A stretch of DNA of 64,000 nt from Egibacteraceae bacterium (lineage in GTDB: Bacteria > Actinomycetota > Nitriliruptoria > Euzebyales > Egibacteraceae): the NCBI GenBank assembly GCA_030447925.1, contig JAUJNX010000002.1, positions 372,001 through 436,000 on the forward strand. Direction: 5' to 3'. This document shows, in pieces, positions 19,988-30,116 of the stretch (the first letter of the stretch is position 1; each line of letters starts with the position of its first letter). The notes under the pieces are model-generated. The model was given only the letters and a program-made list of their open reading frames with translations, made no database searches and was not told the DNA's origin. Position numbers and translations under genes: made by a program.

Positions 19988-20593
19988 TCAGGGGGAGCCG
20001 TCCGGGGGCGCGGGATCGGCGCCGACGGGCAGGCTCCAGATGGCACCCTTGGCACCTGGCCTCTGCGACCGGCGGGCGGACCGCGTCAGGCCCGCCCCGG
20101 ATGCCAGGCCGACGGTCGCCGCCGCCCACACCGTCAGCGGCGCGAGCTGCCCCGTCCGCGCCCACAACGCGGGGAGGCCGGCCAGCGGGACCAGCAGCCG
20201 CGCGACCCCGGCCACGTCCTCCCCGCGTACGGGGGTGGAGTCCGCGGCGTCGTTGGCATCACCCCTGGTCCGGTAGCTGCCGCCGGACAGCACCTCCTCC
20301 ACGCGGTGGGTGAGCAGGCGCTGCGGGCGGCTCGGGTCCGGGAACAGGATCACCTGGCCGGGTAGCAGGTCCCGGCCCGCGGCTGGAGCGAACAGGACCA
20401 CGTCACCCGCCCGCACGGTGGGCTGCATGGAGCCGGACAGCACGACCACGGCGCGCATCGGCGTCAGCAGGGCCGGGCCGATGGCGAGCAGCCCGAGCCA
20501 CAGCATGCCTGCCGCGTACAGCAGGCAGGCCAGCTCGACCGCGGCGCCCGCCCCGCCGCGCCCGGGCCGACGCGCGGCGTCCCCTGCGCGCAC
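19988..20593 (-). CDS. SipW-type (ER-like) signal peptidase I
   Basis: 201-residue S26B membrane protease. The catalytic serine is S55 in VVVLSGSMQPTVRAGDVVL, the dyad base is His96 (LLTHRVEEV) instead of the Lys of ordinary bacterial enzymes, and the conserved GDANDAAD box lies at 111-118. Membrane helices span about 18-45 and 168-186. SipW enzymes are known to process TasA/camelysin-type matrix proteins. The GTG start at 20593 overlaps the last base of the upstream substrate's TAG, so enzyme and substrate are translated together. The frame is open further upstream, but that would overlap the substrate gene. Confidence 0.9.
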   Translation of the reverse strand: MRAGDAARRPGRGGAGAAVELACLLYAAGMLWLGLLAIGPALLTPMRAVVVLSGSMQPTVRAGDVVLFAPAAGRDLLPGQVILFPDPSRPQRLLTHRVEEVLSGGSYRTRGDANDAADSTPVRGEDVAGVARLLVPLAGLPALWARTGQLAPLTVWAAATVGLASGAGLTRSARRSQRPGAKGAIWSLPVGADPAPPDGSP

Positions 20594-21192
20594 TAGGTGT
20601 TCTGCGCTTCCCAGGTGAAGATCGCCGACACGCCGTCGCCCTGGACGTCGTCGCCCGCCGCGGCGTTCAGCGTGTAGACGAAGCGGTACACCCGCGTCTG
20701 GTTGGTGGTCGCCGCCCACGACCCCGCGCCGCTGGCGTAGGCGCTGTGGGTGGTGCCGAAGGCCGCGAGCGTGCCGGTGTACACCGTGCCCTCGGGCGAG
20801 AAGTCCCCGCACCCGCCCGCGAACGTGCCGGTGGTGGTGCTGTCGTAGGTCACCACCAGGTCGAGGTTGCTGTCCAGGGTGTCGCCGGCCGTGTCGTCGG
20901 AGACCGAGCCGTACAGGCGGACGTCCGCAGCCGCCGACCCGTCGTAGGTGACCAGGATGCAGCGCTCGCCGGTGTCGCCGGGGGTGAGCCCCGATGCCGT
21001 GAACAGCGTCGAGCCGCTGTCGTCGTCACGGATCGTCACCGTCCCGGCCTCCCAGCTGTTACCGGTGCTCGACGTCGCCCCGGAGAAGGCCGCGTACGAA
21101 CCGCGCACCACGAACGACGTCACCAGCGCCACCGACAGCACCGCCGCCGCAAGTCGCAAGCCCCCCGGAACGAGCATGTCCCATGCCTCCAC
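20593..21192 (-). CDS. SipW-dependent exported protein, TasA/camelysin-like (family member 1)
   Basis: 199-residue secreted protein. The signal region (LRLAAAVLSVALVTSFVVRG then SYAAFSGATSSTGNSWEAGT) is the SipW-type signal of TasA/CalY-like proteins: hydrophobic helix, then A-[AF]-F-S and N-x-[FW]-x-A-G. The mature domain has SGSTLFTASGLTPGDTGERC ILVTYDG, a second Cys in GGCGDFSPEGTVYTGTL, and ends FTWEAQ. Two relatives with the same layout lie at 25368 and 29154. It is probably a surface or matrix component; fibre formation is an inference. The start could also be the ATG at 21177. Confidence 0.82.
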   Translation of the reverse strand: MEAWDMLVPGGLRLAAAVLSVALVTSFVVRGSYAAFSGATSSTGNSWEAGTVTIRDDDSGSTLFTASGLTPGDTGERCILVTYDGSAAADVRLYGSVSDDTAGDTLDSNLDLVVTYDSTTTGTFAGGCGDFSPEGTVYTGTLAAFGTTHSAYASGAGSWAATTNQTRVYRFVYTLNAAAGDDVQGDGVSAIFTWEAQNT

Positions 21193-21347: not shown

Positions 21348-24300
21348 TTGCGGGACGTGATCCGACGGGAGCAGACGGCGATGCGCGACGGCACCGACGC
21401 CACGGCGACCCGCCGCTCGGCGGCGGGGGTGGCTGCCGTGTCGCTGCTGGCCGCCGCAGTGCTCACGCTGCCCTTCACGCGCGCCGCGTTCACCGGCTCC
21501 ACCAGCGCGGGGTCCACCTTCACCGCTGGCACCTGGGCGGCGGCGATCGCCGGGGCCCTGTCGTGGTGGGGCGACGGTAGCTCCGGCCAGGGCGCCACCC
21601 CGACCGTGCCGACCAAGCTCGGCACCGACGCGCCCTGGGCCGGCTTCGCGGCTGGGGACGAACACACCTGCGCGACCCGCACCGACGCCACCCTGTGGTG
21701 CTGGGGCTCCAACGCCTCCGGCCAGCTGGGACTCGACGACACCACCCAGCGGACCAGCCCCACCCAGGTCGGCACCGCCACCACCTGGGACAGTGTCACG
21801 GCCGGGAGCTACCACACCTGCGCGACCCGCACCGACGCCACCCTGTGGTGCTGGGGCTCCAACGCCTCCGGCCAGCTGGGACTCGACGACACCACCCAGC
21901 GGACCAGCCCCACCCAGGTCGGCACCGCCACCACCTGGGACAGTGTCACGGCCCTACACACCTGCGCGACCCGCACCGACGCCACCCTGTGGTGCTGGGG
22001 CTCCACACGCCTCCGGCCAGCTGGGACTCGACGACACCACCCAGCGGACCAGCCCCACCCAGGTCGGCACCGCCACCACCTGGGACACGGGACACAGCTG
22101 CGCGACCCGCACCACCCTGTGGTGCTGGTGGTGCTGGGGCGACAACTCCTTCGGTCAGCTCGGGGTCGGCGACAGGCGCTGCGACCAACCAACTGTGGTG
22201 CCTCCGGCCCACTCGGCGACCCCACCCGCGGGCCGGCAGGCCCGCCGCCGGCGCGGACACCGCCACCACCTGGCGACAGCCCCACCGCGGGCTGGGACGC
22301 CACACCTGGGCCAGTGCGCTGGGACCACACCACCCGCACCGACGCCACCCTGTGGTGCTGGGGCGACAACCTCTCCGGCCAGCTCGGGCTGGACGACACC
22401 ACGAACCGGACCGCCCCCACCCAGGTGGGCGCCGCCACCACCTGGGCCGCCCCGACCGCGGGCGCCGGACACAGCTGCGCGACCAGAACCGACGGCACGG
22501 GGTGGTGCTGGGGCGCCAACACCCACGGCCAGCTCGGACTGGGGGACCCGAACGACCGCATCAGCCCCGACCAGGTCGGCACCGCCGCCAGCTGGGCCGG
22601 CGCAGCCGGCGGCCTTGGGCACACCTGCGCGACGCGCACGGACGGGACGCTGTGGTGCTTCGGCGCCAACGGCTTCGGGCGGCTCGGGGTCGGCGACACC
22701 GCGGACCGGGCCAGCCCCACCCAGGTCGGCACCGCCACCACCTGGGACAGCGTCACCGCCGGCTCGTCCACACCTGCGCCACCCGCACCGACGGCACCCT
22801 GTGGTGCTGGGGCCGGAACGCCGACGGGCAGCTGGGCGTCGGCGACGTCAGCGACCGGACCAGCCCGACCCAGGTCGGCACCGCCACCACCTGGGACAGC
22901 GTCACCGCGGGCGGCGGGCACACCTGCGCGACCCGCACCGACGCCACCCTGTGGTGCTGGGGCGACAACATCTCCCGGCCAGCTCGGATTGGGCGACACC
23001 ACCGGGCGGACCAGCCCCATCCAGGTCGGCACCGCCACCACCTGGGCGGACCCTGCCGCGGGCGAGGCCCACACCTGCGCCACCCGCACCGACGCCACCC
23101 TGTGGTGCTGGGGCCGGAACGCCAGCGGCCAGCTCGGGCTCGGCGACACCACCGGCCAGACCAGCCCCACCCGGGTCGGCACCGCCACCACCTGGGCGGA
23201 CCCTGCCGCGGGCGAGGCCCACACCTGCGCCACCCGCACCGACGCCACCCTGTGGTGCTGGGGCCGGAACGCCAGCGGCCAGCTCGGGCTCGGCGACACC
23301 ACCGGCCAGACCAGCCCCACCCAGGTCGGCACCGCCACCACCTGGGCCAGCATCACCGCCGGCTCGTCCCACACCTGCGCCACCCGCACCGACGCCACCC
23401 TGTGGTGCTGGGGCAACAACGACAACGGCCAGCTCGGGCTCGGCGACGCCACCGGCCAGACCAGCCCCACCCAGGTCGGCACCGCCACCACGTGGGCCGG
23501 CCCCGCCGCGGGCGGGTTCCACACGTGCGCCACCCGCACCGACGCCACCCTGTGGTGTTGGGGCGACAGCTACTCGGGCCAGGCGGGCGTCGACGCGTCG
23601 ATGGGGACGACCGCGGTACAGGTGGGCACCGCCACCACCTGGGACAGTGCCGCCGCCGGGTGGGCCCACGTCTGCGCGACCCGCACCGACGGCACCCTGT
23701 GGTGCTGGGGCAACGCCGACGCCGACCAGCTCGGACTCGGCACGCCGCCGACCGGACCAGGCCCACCCAGGTCGGCACCGCCACCACCTGGTCCAGCGTC
23801 ACCGCCGGTGAGCTGCACACGTGCGCCACCCGCACCGACGCCACCCTGTGGTGCTGGGGCAACAACACCAGCGGGGAGCTCGGGATGGGCGACGCCGCCG
23901 GCCGCAGCAGCCCCACCCAGGTCGGCACCGCCACCACCTGGGCCAGCGTCACCGCCGGCGGCTCCCACACCTGCGCCACCCGCACCGACGCCACCCTGTG
24001 GTGCTGGGGGGACAACGTCGCCAGCCAGCTCGGACTCGGCGACACCACCGATCGGACCAGCCCCACCCAGGTCGGCACCGCCACCACCACCTGGGCCGGC
24101 GTCACCGCCGGCGGCTCCCACACCTGCGCCACCCGCACCGACGCCACCCTGTGGTGCTGGGGCGAAAACTTCGACGGGCAACTGGGACTCGGCGACACCA
24201 CCACCCGGACCAGCCCCACCCAGGTCGGCACCGCCACCACCTGGGCCGGCGTCACCGCCGGCGGCTCCCACACCTGCGCCACCCGCACCGACGCCACCCT

Positions 24301-24595
24301 GTGGTGCTGGGGCAACAACTTCGACGGGCAACTGGGACTCGGCGACACCACCGACCGGACCAGCCCCACCCAGGTCGGCACCGCCACCACCTGGGCCACC
24401 CCGGCCGCGGGCGAGTTCCACACATGCGCCACCCGCACCGACGCCACCGCCTGGTGCTGGGGAACCAACGCCAGCGGTCAGCTCGGAATCGGCGGCACCA
24501 CCGGGCGGACCAGTCCCACCCAGCTCAGCACCCCGTCCGCCGTCCAGAAGGTCTTCTCCGGCCCCATCAGCAGTGCGACCTACGCCATCACCTGA
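21348..24595 (+). pseudogene. Exported RCC1-repeat protein, SipW-type signal, several frameshifts
   Basis: A signal region (TRAAFTGSTSAGSTFTAGTW) of the same SipW type as the neighbours is followed by about 19 RCC1-like repeats of roughly 50 residues (150 bp), each containing [14 protein letters not shown] and [23 protein letters not shown]1 repeats form beta-propellers; two Cys per repeat fit an oxidising outer location. The reading frame changes near 22005, 22180-22320, 22765, 22975 and 23745; missing or extra C bases explain several of them. If repaired, one protein of about 1080 residues ends at YAIT (24595). The start may be TTG 21348, with GGAG upstream, or ATG 21381. Repeat-length identity makes assembly or sequencing error likely, but decay is possible. 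Confidence 0.75.
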
Positions 24596-24599
24596 CCAG

Positions 24600-24614
24600 T
24601 CGATGGTCACCTCC
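24600..24614 (+). repeat. 15-bp direct repeat, right copy, at the ruvC-side edge of the inserted genes
   Basis: Second exact copy of TCGATGGTCACCTCC (see 19934-19948), five bases after the RCC1 stop codon and 28 bases from the ruvC stop. Confidence 0.5.
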
Positions 24615-24641
24615 CTACCGGGCGGAAGCCCGCGGGCAGGG

Positions 24642-25121
24642 TCACCGCAGGACGGTGCCGAGCTGCAGGTGGCAGATGGCCAGGGCGAGGGCATCGGCGG
24701 TGTCGGCCGGCCGGGGCACGGACTCCAGGCCCAGCAGGGCGCGGACCATGAAGCCGACCTGCCGCTTGTCCGCCGACCCGTCGCCGGTCACCGTGGCCTT
24801 GACCTGGGTCGGGGTGTACTCGGCGACCGGCACGCCCACCTGCTCCGCGCAGAGCAGGACGACCCCGGCGGCCTGGCCCACGCCCATCGCGGTCGGGGTG
24901 TTGTTGTTGACGAACACGCGCTCCACGGCGACGGCGTCGGGACGGGCGTCGGCGAGCAGGGCGGACAGCTCGCGGTGGATCTGGTGCAGGCGCCGCGACG
25001 TGCGGTCGCCCGGCGGGGTGCGGATCACCCCCGCGCGGATCGCGCGGGGCCGGTGCCCCGGCCCCTCGACGACGCCGACCCCGCACCGCGACAGCCCGGG
25101 GTCCACCCCCACGACCCGCAC
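24642..25121 (-). CDS. ruvC: Holliday junction endonuclease RuvC
   Basis: 159-residue resolvase that nicks four-way junctions held by RuvAB. The catalytic acids are visible: VVGVDPGLSRCGVG (first Asp), AVAVERVFVNNNTPTAMG (Glu) and PADTADALALAICH (last two Asp), with KRQVGFMVRALLGL between. The GTG at 25121 is chosen over longer openings because the family starts MRVxGxDPG and because GGGAGG lies seven bases upstream. A LexA box sits at 25155. The normal downstream neighbours ruvAB are displaced by the signal-peptidase and RCC1 genes. Confidence 0.96.
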   Translation of the reverse strand: MRVVGVDPGLSRCGVGVVEGPGHRPRAIRAGVIRTPPGDRTSRRLHQIHRELSALLADARPDAVAVERVFVNNNTPTAMGVGQAAGVVLLCAEQVGVPVAEYTPTQVKATVTGDGSADKRQVGFMVRALLGLESVPRPADTADALALAICHLQLGTVLR

Positions 25122-25154
25122 GCCGCCCCTCCCGCTCCCCGCCGTCCCGGCGGA

Positions 25155-25168
25155 CGAACACCCGTTCG
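25155..25168 (-). promoter_or_regulatory. LexA (SOS) box upstream of ruvC
   Basis: CGAAC-ACCC-GTTCG, a second perfect match to CGAAC-N4-GTTCG, 34 bases before the ruvC GTG. On the minus strand the -10-like TAGCGT precedes it. Together with the adjoining GCGCCGGACGCTAGCACCGG it is almost identical to the ruvA-proximal site, apart from single-base gaps. Confidence 0.82.
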
Positions 25169-25328
25169 CGCCGGACGCTAGCACCGGGGTGCGGGCGCGC
25201 GCGACAGGCGCGACGGGCCAGGGGGCGGCGCCGCCGGGGACAGCGCTGACGTCGGCGGTCACCCTGGCCACGCCGCTGGCGGGGTTGCCGCTGCCGGTGA
25301 CAGGTCGACGTGGGCGGTCACGACGACG

Positions 25329-25367: not shown

Positions 25368-26033
25368 CTACGGCGCGAGCCGCGCCTCCCAGGTGAAGGT
25401 CTGCTCCGCGCTCAGCCCCTGCGCCGCGTTGTCGTCCCGCACCGTGATGACGAACTCGTAGTCGTGGGACTCGCCGGTGGTCCAGACCTCCGGGGTGCCG
25501 AAGGTCGGGTCCCAGCGCCCGGCGTCGAAGTCGTCGGGGAAGTCCTCGAGCGTCCCGTCGTACACGATGCCGTGGGGCCCGTGGCCGTAGTCCCCCGTGT
25601 CGGCGGTGAAGCCCACGCACGAGTCGTAGGGCTGGGTGAGGCCGGTACCCCGTCGGACGGTGAGGTCGAGGTACGGAGCCAGCTCGAAGGTGCCGGCAGT
25701 GGCGGGGGCGCCGTCGCCGGTTCTGCCGTAGAGCGAGACGTTGGCGTCCAGGGTCCCGTCGTAGTCCACCGTGATGCACGAGGTGTCCGTGTCGCCCGGC
25801 ACGGCCCCGGCCAGGCTCAGCATCGGCGTCGACCCCGAGCTGCCGCTGTTGTCCAGGGTCACCGAGCCCGCCGCGAACGCGTTGCCGGTGTTGGCGGTGG
25901 CGGCGCTGAACGCCGCCCAGGTGCCCGCGCCGCCCAGCGCGCCGGCCAGGAGGAGCACGAGGGCGGTCAGTCCCAGGCGCAGCGAGCGGGACGTCGGAGG
26001 CGGGGACCCGGCCGGCAGCGAGAACGTGGACAC
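25368..26033 (-). CDS. SipW-dependent exported protein, TasA/camelysin-like (family member 2)
   Basis: 221-residue secreted protein of the same family as 20593-21192. After a basic N-terminus and helix (LGLTALVLLLAGALGGAG) comes the signal motif TWAAFSAATANTGNAFAAGS. The mature part has AVPGDTDTSCITVDYDGTLD, LYG, a second Cys in YDSCVGFTADTG, GIVYDGTLEDF and the closing FTWEARLAP, all at matching places in the relatives. It lies on the minus strand upstream of ruvC and is divergent from the pseudo-signal-peptidase operon, with which it shares the 162-base gap 26034-26195. Two Cys may form a disulfide outside the cell. Confidence 0.8.
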   Translation of the reverse strand: MSTFSLPAGSPPPTSRSLRLGLTALVLLLAGALGGAGTWAAFSAATANTGNAFAAGSVTLDNSGSSGSTPMLSLAGAVPGDTDTSCITVDYDGTLDANVSLYGRTGDGAPATAGTFELAPYLDLTVRRGTGLTQPYDSCVGFTADTGDYGHGPHGIVYDGTLEDFPDDFDAGRWDPTFGTPEVWTTGESHDYEFVITVRDDNAAQGLSAEQTFTWEARLAP

Positions 26034-26195: not shown

Positions 26196-26729
26196 GTGGA
26201 CGCCGCGACGGTCCCGGCGTGGCTGGGCCGACGGCTCGGCCCCGCGGCCCTGCTCCTGGGCTGGTTCTACCTGGCGATCGTGGCGTGGCTGCTCATCTGG
26301 ACCGCGGTGCCGTGGGCCGCGCTGGGTTGGCACCCGCGCGTGGTCGAGGGCGGCGTCGGTCCCGACGTGCAGCCCGGCGACGTGGTCCTCGTCGACCCCT
26401 CGTCGTCCGACGCGCTGGGGACCGGCATGGTCGTGGTCACCGCCGACGGCGCCCTGGCGCGCGTCCGGGAGCAGGTCGCGCCCGGGCGCTGGTCGACCGA
26501 CGGCGGCGGGGAGATCGCCGGCGCCGACGTCGGCGGCGTGGGCAGGCTGCGCGGGCCGGCCGTCGCCACCCCGGCCGTGTGGTGGCGGCAGCGCCCCGGC
26601 GAGTCCCACGCGCACCTGCTCCGGGTCCCCGCGCCGGCGGGGTGGATCACCGCGGGCCGCGGCGCCGGTCCCCCGCTGCGCCGGCGCGCGGTGCACGCCC
26701 GCCCGGCGTGGACCGGGGGCCGGCCGTGA
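26196..26729 (+). CDS. S26 signal-peptidase-like membrane protein lacking catalytic residues
   Basis: 177-residue protein with one strong helix (about 17-40) followed by an S26-like core. The stretch VVEGGVGPDVQPGDVVLVDP aligns to the active-site segment VVLSGSMQPTVRAGDVVLF of the SipW-type enzyme at 19988, but the catalytic Ser is Gly53, the preceding Ser is Glu51, and Met is Val54. The dyad His is replaced (ALARVRE versus THRVEE, Ala88), and the GDAND box is degraded to DGGGE. The fold-defining P-x4-GDVVL is kept. It therefore looks like a pseudoenzyme, perhaps a partner or regulator of the active peptidase; that role is inferred. The stop overlaps the start of the GGDEF-EAL gene as GTGA. 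Confidence 0.7.
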   Translation: MDAATVPAWLGRRLGPAALLLGWFYLAIVAWLLIWTAVPWAALGWHPRVVEGGVGPDVQPGDVVLVDPSSSDALGTGMVVVTADGALARVREQVAPGRWSTDGGGEIAGADVGGVGRLRGPAVATPAVWWRQRPGESHAHLLRVPAPAGWITAGRGAGPPLRRRAVHARPAWTGGRP

Positions 26730-29152
26730 GCCCGGCCACGGCGACCGACGCCGGCGACCGGCTCGCCCCGGCCGCGCTGGAGGCCGTCGAGGCCGCGCTG
26801 CGCCAGGTCCGGGTGCTCGCCGCCGCCGTCCTGTTCCTCCAGTTCGCCCGCCAACCCGCCGGGACCGCGGACCTGCCCTTCGGCCTGTCCCCGCAGGCGG
26901 TGGCCGTGGTGCTGGCGCTGCTGCTCGGCGGTGTGAACCTGCTCTCGCTGCGCGGGCAGCGCGCCACCGGTCGCCGGGCCGTGGTGCTGGGCGCCGCGGA
27001 GCTCGCGGCCGACGCGGCCCTGGTCTTCCTGGTCGTCACCGTGCTCGGCGTGGGCCGCGAGGACCTCATGTGGGTGGCCTTCGTCATCCCCGTCCTGGAG
27101 GGCGCGCTGCGCTACCGGCTGCCGGGCGCCGTGGCGACCTGGGCCCTGCTGTCGTGCGCCTACCTCGCCGCCCAGCTCAGCGGCGTCGGCGACGCGACCC
27201 TCGACGAGGAGCTGTTCCTCGGCACCCTGGCGACCGCCGTGCAGCGCCTCGCGGTCATCCTGCTCGTGGCGGTCCCCGCGGGCTACCTCTCGGGCCAGCT
27301 GCTGGTCGACATCGACACCCAGCGCCGCGCGACCCGCGACGCCGTGCGCCGCAGCCTGCTGCTGCAGCGCGTCGCCGAGGCCGGCGAGCGCGTCACCCAG
27401 CTGGACGAGGAGGTGCTCCAGGCGGTCCTGGACTGCGCCACCGCGCTGGGCTTCCCCGACGCGAGCGTCTGGGAGCCGCGCGCCGGCGGCGGGCGGGTCG
27501 CGGCGGCCGCCGGGCGCGACGCCGGGACCCTGCCCTCGCCCGCGGCGCTGCGCGCCGCCACCGACCTGGCGGTGCGCCAGCGCGCCACCGTCGTGGTCGA
27601 ACCGGCCGACGCCGACCCCGCGGAGCTGCGCGTCCTGGCCGACCACGACCGGGCCGCCGTGGTCCTCACCCCGCTGGTGCGCCGCGACGACGTCGCCCTG
27701 CTGCTCATGGCCGGCGTGCGCGAGGGCCCGCTGGCCGCGCCCCAGATCGAGAGCCTGGAGCTGCTGGCCGGGCAGGCGGGGACGGCGCTGCGCAACGGGC
27801 TGCTGGTCACCGAGCTGCGCGCCGCGCAGGCCCAGCTGGAGCACCTGGCGTTCACCGACGGGCTGACCTCGCTGGCCAACCGCGCGCTGTTCCTGCTGCG
27901 CCTCCAGGACACCCTGGCCCGCCGCACCGCCGAGGGCGGGCGGGGCGCCGTGCTGTTCCTCGACCTCGACCGCTTCAAGCCGGTGAACGACACCCTCGGC
28001 CACGACGTCGGCGACGAGCTGCTGCGCGACGTCGCCGGGCGGCTGGTGCAGGCCGTCCGCGCGGGCGACCTGGTGGCGCGGCTCGGGGGCGACGAGTTCG
28101 TGGTGCTCATGGACCGCACGGCCGACGACGCCGAGCCGGACCAGGTCGCCGAGCGCATCGTCGCGGCGCTGTCCGCCCCGTTCACGCCGTCGGGCCACGA
28201 GGTCGTGATCTCGACCAGCGTCGGCATCGCCGCCGTCGACGGCACCCTGGAGTCGGCCGCGGAGACCCTGCGGCGCGCCGACGTGGCGATGTACTCGGCC
28301 AAGGCGGCCGGCCAGGGCCGGTGGCGGCACTGGTCGGTCGAGCTGGACGCCGAGGTGCGCGAGCGGGTGTCCCTGGAGGCCGACCTGCGCCACGCCTTGG
28401 AGCGCGACGAGCTCGGCCTGGTCTACCAGCCGATCGTGCGCCTGGCCGACGGGGCCATCGAGGGCTTCGAGGCGCTGCTGCGCTGGCACCACCCGCGCCT
28501 GGGCCTCCTGGGGCCCGAGCGCTTCCTGCCCGTCGCGGAGGAGTCCGGGCTCATCGACGAGCTGGGCCGCTGGGTGCTGGACCGTGCGGCCGAGCAGCTC
28601 CGCGGCCTCCAGGCCGACCTGCCCGTCGCGCCGTTCGTGTCGGTCAACGTGTCCCCGCGGCAGCTGCGCCACCCGGGGTTCCTGGCGATCCTGGACACCG
28701 TCGTCGCCGACGCCGGCGTGGACCCCAACGGGCTGCTGCTGGAGATCAGCGAGCGCGTCGTGGCCTTCGACGACTGCGAGCAGCTCCTCCACGAGCTGCG
28801 CCGGCGCGGGCTGCGCCTGGCGCTGGACGACTTCGGCACCGGGCAGACCTCGCTGCGCTACCTGCGCCGCTTCCCGCTGGACGTGCTGAAGGTCGACAAG
28901 AGCATCGTGTCGGGTGCCGCCGGTGACCGCCGCGACCGCGTGGTGTTCGAGGCGATCCTGGGCCTGGCGTCCGCGCTGGGCCTCGCCCTGGTGGCCGAGG
29001 GCGTGGAGGACGAGCCGCAGGCGCGCCTGCTGCGGGAGCTGGGCTGCCGGCTGGGCCAGGGCTTCCACCTGGACCGCCCGGTCGACGGCGCGGAGGTCCC
29101 CGCGCTGGCCCGCGACCGCGCGCCCGCGGCGTCGCTGGCCGGGAGCCGCTGA
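26726..29152 (+). CDS. Membrane GGDEF-EAL protein (c-di-GMP cyclase/phosphodiesterase)
   Basis: 808-residue signalling enzyme. About six N-terminal membrane segments (about 20-190) precede a GAF-like domain (about 235-360), then GGDEF and EAL domains. The cyclase motif RLGGDEFVVL (near 454) is intact, so GTP-to-c-di-GMP synthesis is possible; the EAL motif (EGFEALLRW, near 581), VNVSPRQL, EISERV and DDFGTGQTSLRYL (near 701) and EGVE support phosphodiesterase activity. Which activity dominates cannot be told. It starts by GTGA overlap with the pseudo-peptidase and ends one base before the third exported protein gene, making a three-gene operon that links c-di-GMP to the export cassette. Confidence 0.93.
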   Translation: MSPATATDAGDRLAPAALEAVEAALRQVRVLAAAVLFLQFARQPAGTADLPFGLSPQAVAVVLALLLGGVNLLSLRGQRATGRRAVVLGAAELAADAALVFLVVTVLGVGREDLMWVAFVIPVLEGALRYRLPGAVATWALLSCAYLAAQLSGVGDATLDEELFLGTLATAVQRLAVILLVAVPAGYLSGQLLVDIDTQRRATRDAVRRSLLLQRVAEAGERVTQLDEEVLQAVLDCATALGFPDASVWEPRAGGGRVAAAAGRDAGTLPSPAALRAATDLAVRQRATVVVEPADADPAELRVLADHDRAAVVLTPLVRRDDVALLLMAGVREGPLAAPQIESLELLAGQAGTALRNGLLVTELRAAQAQLEHLAFTDGLTSLANRALFLLRLQDTLARRTAEGGRGAVLFLDLDRFKPVNDTLGHDVGDELLRDVAGRLVQAVRAGDLVARLGGDEFVVLMDRTADDAEPDQVAERIVAALSAPFTPSGHEVVISTSVGIAAVDGTLESAAETLRRADVAMYSAKAAGQGRWRHWSVELDAEVRERVSLEADLRHALERDELGLVYQPIVRLADGAIEGFEALLRWHHPRLGLLGPERFLPVAEESGLIDELGRWVLDRAAEQLRGLQADLPVAPFVSVNVSPRQLRHPGFLAILDTVVADAGVDPNGLLLEISERVVAFDDCEQLLHELRRRGLRLALDDFGTGQTSLRYLRRFPLDVLKVDKSIVSGAAGDRRDRVVFEAILGLASALGLALVAEGVEDEPQARLLRELGCRLGQGFHLDRPVDGAEVPALARDRAPAASLAGSR

Positions 29153-29153
29153 C

Positions 29154-30116
29154 GTGCCCCGCGTGTTCGACCGCGCCGAGATCGACCGGCCCGAGCACGC
29201 GGACCGCCCCGACGCCACCGGCGGGGCGGCCGTGCCGGCGATGGCCGCCGCCGTGTCGTCGCTGCTGGTGAGCCTGCTGGTGGTGTCGGCCTCGGCCGGG
29301 GCCCTGACCAGCGGCGCCGCCAACCTGGACAACGTGTTCGGCGTCCTGGCCGCGGGGTCGACCGCGCCGGGCGGTGACGCGGCGAGCGACGGGCAGGTGA
29401 TCGCGGCGGGGGACGCGCCCGCCGACCCGGCGGCCGGGGACGCGCCCGCCCTGGACGAGGGTGTGCCGGACGACGGCGTCACCGACGACGGCGTCACCGA
29501 CGACGACGGCTTCCCCGATGACGTCGACGAGGGCGACCCCGCCGACCCGGAGGGGGACCCCGCCACCGACGAGGACGGCGGAGCGGATCCGGTCGACCCG
29601 GGGCCGGGCCGTCCCGCGGCCCCCGGCGACCCGCCCGCCCCGGCGCCCGGCGCACCCGCGGTCCCGGCCGTCCCCGCGGTCACGCCCGCACCGGCCCCCG
29701 CGGTCCGGCTGTACGACGACGATGAGGGCGCCGCCCTGTTCAGCCTGCCCGCGATGGCGCCGGGACGGTCCTACCAGCGCTGCATCACCGTCACCTACGA
29801 GGGCGCCACGCCGGCGCGCGTCGCGCTGGTGACCGAGGCGGACGGGGCGCTGGCGGAGCAGCTGGACGTGCGCATCGAGGTCGGCCGGTCGGGCTCGTAC
29901 GCCGACTGCACCGACTTCGTCCCCGAGGGCACCGTGTTCACGGGCACGCTCGCCGGGTTGGCGGACCTGCACGGGCCCGACGGCGCCGGGCTGGACGCGC
30001 TGCGCATCACCAGCACGCCCACGTCGCGGTCGTTCCGCATGACCTTGGCGCTGGTCGGCGACCCGGGCGACGCGACCGCGAACGCCGACTTCCAGTGGCG
30101 CGCGACCCCGGACTAG
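29154..30116 (+). CDS. Membrane/exported protein with acidic-proline linker and TasA-like C-terminal domain (family member 3)
   Basis: 320 residues. After a cytoplasmic N-terminus rich in Asp and Arg comes a helix (AAAVSSLLVSLLVVSASAGA) followed by LTSGAANLDNVFGVLAAGST, the SipW-type signature in diverged form. A long Asp/Pro/Ala-rich linker (about 80-190, with VTDDGVTDD repeats) leads to a domain shared with the two relatives: GAALFSLPAMAPGRSYQRCI TVTYEG, Cys in YADCTDFVPEGTVFTGTL, and the end FQWRATPD. The linker suggests the domain is held away from the membrane or wall. Co-transcribed with the GGDEF-EAL gene. The function is unknown. Confidence 0.72.
   Translation: MPRVFDRAEIDRPEHADRPDATGGAAVPAMAAAVSSLLVSLLVVSASAGALTSGAANLDNVFGVLAAGSTAPGGDAASDGQVIAAGDAPADPAAGDAPALDEGVPDDGVTDDGVTDDDGFPDDVDEGDPADPEGDPATDEDGGADPVDPGPGRPAAPGDPPAPAPGAPAVPAVPAVTPAPAPAVRLYDDDEGAALFSLPAMAPGRSYQRCITVTYEGATPARVALVTEADGALAEQLDVRIEVGRSGSYADCTDFVPEGTVFTGTLAGLADLHGPDGAGLDALRITSTPTSRSFRMTLALVGDPGDATANADFQWRATPD

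What the first reader, a model, noticed from the sequence alone, without database searches (positions are those of the whole stretch)
26196..26729. Signal-peptidase pseudoenzyme encoded with a c-di-GMP enzyme
The active-site segment keeps P-x4-GDVVL, but Ser becomes Gly53, the dyad His becomes Ala, and the GDAND box is lost. It is translationally coupled to the GGDEF-EAL gene. A regulator or scaffold for the real SipW is plausible and, as far as I know, not described.
Basis: partly seen in the sequence, partly recalled or inferred. Interest (0 to 1): 0.65.

Follow-up and report, generated by a model that had tools for sequence, protein, structure and literature searches.

The report
Dead signal peptidase beside c-di-GMP enzyme
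This bacterial gene encodes a protein built like a signal peptidase (the enzyme that trims exported proteins) but stripped of every catalytic residue; it sits in an operon whose relatives in other bacteria are a working signal peptidase fused in one chain to a c-di-GMP signalling enzyme, which suggests a little-explored link between biofilm signalling and matrix-protein export.

Summary
Confirmed: ORF 26196-26729(+) is a real S26B (SipW/Sec11-type) signal-peptidase homologue (E 4e-15 to a profile that excludes it; confident AlphaFold core; best fold match is Streptococcus SipA). Its Ser is Gly53, His is Ala88, the GDA Asp is Gly104 and the second Asp is deleted, as are the active-site loop and the C-terminal TM helix. 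Of 112 S26B domains gathered it is the only one lacking all four. It overlaps a GGDEF-EAL gene by 4 bp, which is 1 bp from a TasA-like gene.

In Acidimicrobiia the same operon exists with the two genes fused: TasA-like – [intact S26B::membrane-GAF-GGDEF-EAL] – TasA-like (7 loci in one frame, an eighth interrupted by Ns). The window enzyme groups with the fusion enzymes (100/100), and the downstream gene matches best in 8/8 loci. The window locus is thus a split, catalytically dead version of a c-di-GMP enzyme/signal-peptidase unit. An active SipW lies 6 kb away.

Most likely function (inferred): a substrate-binding, non-cleaving extracytoplasmic module of the c-di-GMP enzyme. A decaying relic cannot be excluded. 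S26 pseudoenzymes are known (SipA); I found no description of an S26B–GGDEF-EAL unit.

The parts
26196..26729 (+). S26B (SipW/Sec11-type) signal-peptidase pseudoenzyme, 177 aa: one N-terminal TM helix (about 17-43), beta core 46-120, no C-terminal TM; Gly53/Ala88/Gly104 replace Ser/His/Asp, second Asp deleted
26352..26354 (+). codon of Gly53 at the position of the nucleophile Ser
26726..29152 (+). membrane protein with GAF, GGDEF and EAL domains, 808 aa; GGDEF motif, RxxD I-site, EALLRW and DDFG motifs present; GTG overlaps the stop of the pseudoenzyme gene
29154..30116 (+). TasA/camelysin-like protein ('TasA3'), 320 aa: N-terminal TM segment, acidic/Pro-rich linker, TasA-like domain; 1 bp after the GGDEF-EAL gene; counterpart of the gene that follows the fusions in Acidimicrobiia
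25368..26033 (-). TasA/camelysin-like protein with SipW-type signal peptide ('TasA2'), divergent neighbour
20593..21192 (-). TasA/camelysin-like protein ('TasA1')
19988..20592 (-). intact S26B signal peptidase (window SipW); Ser, His, Asp, Asp present; true start not settled (around 20540-20590)

Best explanation
26196-26729 is the detached and catalytically dead peptidase half of a two-part membrane system whose ancestral or sister form is a single chain: an S26B signal peptidase fused to a membrane GAF-GGDEF-EAL c-di-GMP enzyme, encoded between TasA-like proteins. Shown: fold family, loss of all catalytic residues, tight gene coupling, fused counterparts with intact catalytic residues, common ancestry of the c-di-GMP enzyme and of the downstream TasA-like protein. 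Inferred: the dead domain still sits outside the membrane, is held by its N-terminal helix next to the GGDEF-EAL protein, binds the signal-peptide/anchor region of the TasA-like protein without cutting it, and so lets the c-di-GMP enzyme sense, or control the release of, matrix protein, while the separate active SipW does the cutting.
For: S26B homology E 4e-15 and coding pattern. AlphaFold with 38 sequences: pLDDT 86-96 over residues 11-50 and 61-120 (81 over 51-60); top PDB fold match is SipA 4n31, followed mainly by the LexA/UmuD/SPase superfamily. 112 S26B domains: only this one lacks Ser, His and both Asp. Operon with 4-bp overlap and 1-bp gap. Acidimicrobiia: S26B plus DGC N-terminus plus GGDEF plus EAL in one open frame in L095, L096, L098, L099, L100, L105, and in L103 up to the contig end inside GGDEF; L107 has both halves, interrupted by Ns. 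Their downstream gene matches TasA3 better than TasA1 or TasA2 in 8 of 8 loci, counting L153. Tree: window DGC and its paralogue join the fusion DGCs apart from stand-alone ones, 100/100, unrooted. TasA-linked S26B domains have a c-di-GMP enzyme within 5 kb in 25 of 41 cases against 4 of 69 without TasA. Losses among conserved columns cluster in the active site (8 of 10 against 3 of 12, p 0.03).
Against: Known from one genome; no close relative, so purifying selection cannot be measured. The S26B tree leaves the pseudoenzyme as a long branch (2.06) not placed with the fusion clade, though that placement is not rejected (p-AU 0.33). The C-terminal TM and about 13 residues of loops are gone, which could be decay. 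No evidence of a protein complex. The counts are not phylogenetically independent.
Confidence: 0.5

Rival explanations
1. Decaying relic: the peptidase half lost its job once a second SipW took over; the ORF persists because the downstream gene needs translational coupling.
For: Loss of all catalytic residues, loops and the C-terminal TM; long branch; active SipW 6 kb away; found in one genome only.
Against: Open frame with coding-like GC3 0.97; non-catalytic conserved residues P56, G61, R89, T101, G103, G114, P121 kept; core predicted to fold confidently.
Confidence: 0.28
2. Regulator or scaffold of the nearby active SipW: a dead paralogue that pairs with SipW.
For: Both in one gene region with several TasA-like genes; dead paralogues often pair with live ones (general knowledge).
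Against: The two are only 34% identical and on opposite strands; in relatives the coupled partner is the c-di-GMP enzyme, not another peptidase.
Confidence: 0.12
3. SipA-like assembly chaperone: binds TasA-like subunits at the membrane and promotes fibre assembly, independent of c-di-GMP.
For: SipA of S. pyogenes lacks Ser/Lys, keeps the cleft and is essential for pilus polymerisation (PMC4049620); best fold match is SipA.
Against: The identified neighbours are TasA-like and c-di-GMP genes rather than a pilin cluster; genetic coupling is to a c-di-GMP enzyme.
Confidence: 0.1

Closest known systems
Bacillus SipW / Sec11 (MEROPS S26B, TIGR02228)
   Same: TM helix, beta fold, GDVVL box, neighbouring TasA/camelysin-like genes
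   Different: No Ser, His or Asp; no C-terminal TM; coupled to a GGDEF-EAL gene
SipA of Streptococcus pyogenes FCT pilus loci (PMC4049620)
   Same: Signal-peptidase fold with the catalytic pair replaced; best fold match
   Different: SipA derives from the Ser-Lys branch and serves sortase-built pili; this is S26B, with TasA-like and c-di-GMP genes
LapD/LapG (PMC3032545)
   Same: Membrane GGDEF-EAL protein linked to extracytoplasmic proteolysis of a matrix adhesin (functional analogy)
   Different: LapG is a cysteine protease of another fold; LapD is a c-di-GMP receptor; no fusion, no TasA-like proteins
Acidimicrobiia S26B::GGDEF-EAL fusion operon (found here: L095, L096, L098, L099, L100, L103, L105, L107)
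   Same: Same order of parts: S26B, membrane-GAF-GGDEF-EAL, TasA-like
   Different: One chain with intact Ser/His/Asp/Asp in the fusion; two genes and a dead peptidase in the window

Membership tests
S26B signal peptidase (SipW/Sec11 type) | sequence homology and S26 fold | tested here: met
   E 4.3e-15; AlphaFold core and Foldseek matches to SipA, UmuD, LexA, SpsB, with weak E-values of 0.06 and above
S26B signal peptidase (SipW/Sec11 type) | catalytic Ser, His and Asp residues | tested here: not met
   Gly53, Ala88, Gly104, second Asp deleted
S26B signal peptidase (SipW/Sec11 type) | signal-peptide cleavage activity | not testable with these tools
   needs biochemistry; not expected without the residues
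S26 pseudoenzyme (SipA-like in kind) | fold kept, catalytic residues replaced | tested here: met
S26 pseudoenzyme (SipA-like in kind) | pilus locus with sortase | not tested
   no sortase search was run; neighbours identified are TasA-like and c-di-GMP genes
S26B::GGDEF-EAL unit of Acidimicrobiia | operon order S26B, GGDEF-EAL, TasA-like | tested here: met
S26B::GGDEF-EAL unit of Acidimicrobiia | common ancestry of the GGDEF-EAL part | tested here: met
   100/100 grouping apart from stand-alone enzymes, unrooted
S26B::GGDEF-EAL unit of Acidimicrobiia | common ancestry of the S26B part | tested here: inconclusive
   long branch; clade not recovered, not rejected, p-AU 0.33
S26B::GGDEF-EAL unit of Acidimicrobiia | single chain and active peptidase | tested here: not met
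   two genes, dead peptidase

The most novel reading that the evidence does not exclude
A new class of transmembrane c-di-GMP system: an extracytoplasmic signal-peptidase domain, live and fused in Acidimicrobiia, dead and split in this Nitriliruptoria lineage, joins matrix-protein (TasA-like) export to c-di-GMP synthesis or breakdown; in the window the dead domain serves as a pure substrate sensor.
Probability: 0.3. Interest if true: 0.85.

Novelty: new variant of a known kind. Interest (0 to 1): 0.62.

Why it matters
How c-di-GMP acts on extracellular matrix in Gram-positive lineages is, to my knowledge, poorly known. A signal peptidase covalently joined to a c-di-GMP enzyme, flanked by its likely substrates, makes a direct test possible: does substrate binding or cleavage change c-di-GMP, or does c-di-GMP gate cleavage? 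The dead version in this genome is a natural separation-of-function variant.

Tried and rejected
First genome-contig scan with the pseudoenzyme alone found no relative. A DNA pattern search for the Gly53 motif over 397 genomes was written with the wrong spacing (it misses the window itself) and is discarded. Mixed alignments had no stretch conserved enough for a collection scan. Single-sequence AlphaFold was poor (pLDDT 48) and was replaced by the alignment run. Spurious ORF rejected: homology E 4e-15 and GC3 0.97. Frameshift artefact at the C-terminus rejected: read by eye from the sequence, neither other frame after 26590 gives a hydrophobic helix. The own-genome paralogue of the GGDEF-EAL gene (G000:C21:607061) has no S26 gene nearby. 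Further fusions were sought in 199 Actinomycetota genomes: only the S26 part matched.

Full report
1. The observation. The ORF at 26196-26729(+) encodes 177 aa. It has a GGGAGG 8 nt before its GTG, and its codon-position GC (0.82/0.64/0.97) is like that of neighbouring genes. Pfam and NCBIfam do not recognise it. A profile made from seven S26B peptidases of the same class, without it, scores it 53.6 bits, E 4.3e-15, and an intact Nitriliruptoria S26B aligns at 38% identity, E 4e-11. The only other match in its own genome is the window SipW, 34% identity.

2. Catalytic residues. In 37 aligned relatives Ser, His and both Asp are invariant. Here they are Gly53, Ala88, Gly104 and a gap. The Met and Ser next to the nucleophile are also gone. 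P56, G61, R89, T101, G103, G114 and P121 are kept. Of 112 distinct S26B domains collected, 110 have Ser, one has Thr (L016) and one has Gly (the window). The C-terminal TM of SipW proteins is missing.

3. Fold. AlphaFold2 with the 38-row alignment gives pLDDT 86-96 over residues 11-50 and 61-120 (81 over 51-60), one long helix and a beta core. Foldseek top hit is SipA of S. pyogenes (4n31, probability 1.00), then mostly UmuD, LexA, phage repressors and SpsB, the LexA/signal-peptidase superfamily; E-values are weak (0.06 and above) and the alignment of live peptidases may favour the fold.

4. Operon. The pseudoenzyme stop overlaps the start of a membrane GAF-GGDEF-EAL gene whose GGDEF, RxxD, EALLRW and DDFG motifs are present; 1 bp after it begins a TasA-like gene with an N-terminal TM segment. 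Two further TasA-like genes and an intact SipW lie within about 6 kb.

5. Relatives. A collection scan with three intact S26B peptidases returned 60 loci with organism names. In Acidimicrobiia loci L095, L096, L098, L099, L100, L103 and L105 a single open frame holds an intact S26B domain followed by the same membrane N-terminus, GAF-like region and GGDEF, with EAL in all but L103, which is cut by the contig end; L107 has the same parts interrupted by Ns. A TasA-like gene precedes it, and where the contig continues another follows; the latter matches the window's third gene better than the other two TasA-like genes in 8 of 8 loci, counting L153. The window GGDEF-EAL enzyme and its own-genome paralogue group with the fusion enzymes apart from stand-alone relatives with 100/100 support. 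The S26B tree is not decisive because the pseudoenzyme is a long branch. In the class itself, S26B, TasA-like and GGDEF genes also cluster (L015, L025/L094, L079), and in G170 an intact S26B gene overlaps a membrane GGDEF gene (L207). TasA-linked S26B domains have a c-di-GMP enzyme within 5 kb in 25 of 41 cases, others in 4 of 69 (not independent samples).

6. Organism. L094 is the same contig as G065:C26 (34,535 bases in both, query 100% identical) and is titled Nitriliruptoraceae bacterium; G065 is in the same class as the window genome, so the class is most likely Nitriliruptoria, Actinomycetota.

7. Mechanism. Most likely the dead domain is a retained binding module: signal peptidases bind the signal-peptide end of exported proteins, and loss of the nucleophile turns cutting into binding, as proposed for SipA, whose cleft is kept (PMC4049620). 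Linked to a membrane GGDEF-EAL enzyme, such a module could report matrix-protein load or let c-di-GMP control it, functionally like LapD/LapG (PMC3032545). That chain is inference. Decay is the main rival.

8. Literature. No held paper found joins signal peptidase and GGDEF as a fused protein (four unrelated papers). SipW as a dedicated peptidase for TasA and TapA is known (PMC4551309); the bifunctional role of SipW (Terra 2012) is in that paper's reference list and was not read here.

Noticed in passing
L095 2983-6150; L096 6818-10087; L098 6800-9970; L099 3554-6910; L100 5903-9829; L105 6491-9853: Intact S26B signal peptidase fused in one frame to a membrane GAF-GGDEF-EAL protein in Acidimicrobiia, between TasA-like genes; apparently undescribed and of more interest than the dead version.
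   Followed up: yes
L016 1804-4329 (G044): S26B domain in which the nucleophile Ser is Thr (SDTMAP) with His and Asp kept; possibly a Thr-nucleophile signal peptidase or another inactive form.
   Followed up: no
L026 216-3239; L102 6812-7996; L209 3359-5293: S26B domains followed in the same open frame by beta-propeller-like or RCC1 repeats (in L026 with a second signal-peptide-like segment between): a peptidase fused to what looks like its own substrate.
   Followed up: no
window 21348-25181 and 21695-24595 (+): RCC1-repeat gene whose repeats hop between reading frames several times; either a broken gene or assembly errors in repeats.
   Followed up: no
L095 6985-8154, L096 11366-14431, L098 11207-13357, L099 7892-9283: A second S26B-type gene with an unusual motif (TGSMGDxAPxxS) downstream of the TasA-like gene in the fusion operons.
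   Followed up: no
L207 4572-6787 (G170): Intact S26B gene overlapping a membrane GGDEF gene (motif VGGDF), a two-gene live counterpart of the window arrangement.
   Followed up: partly
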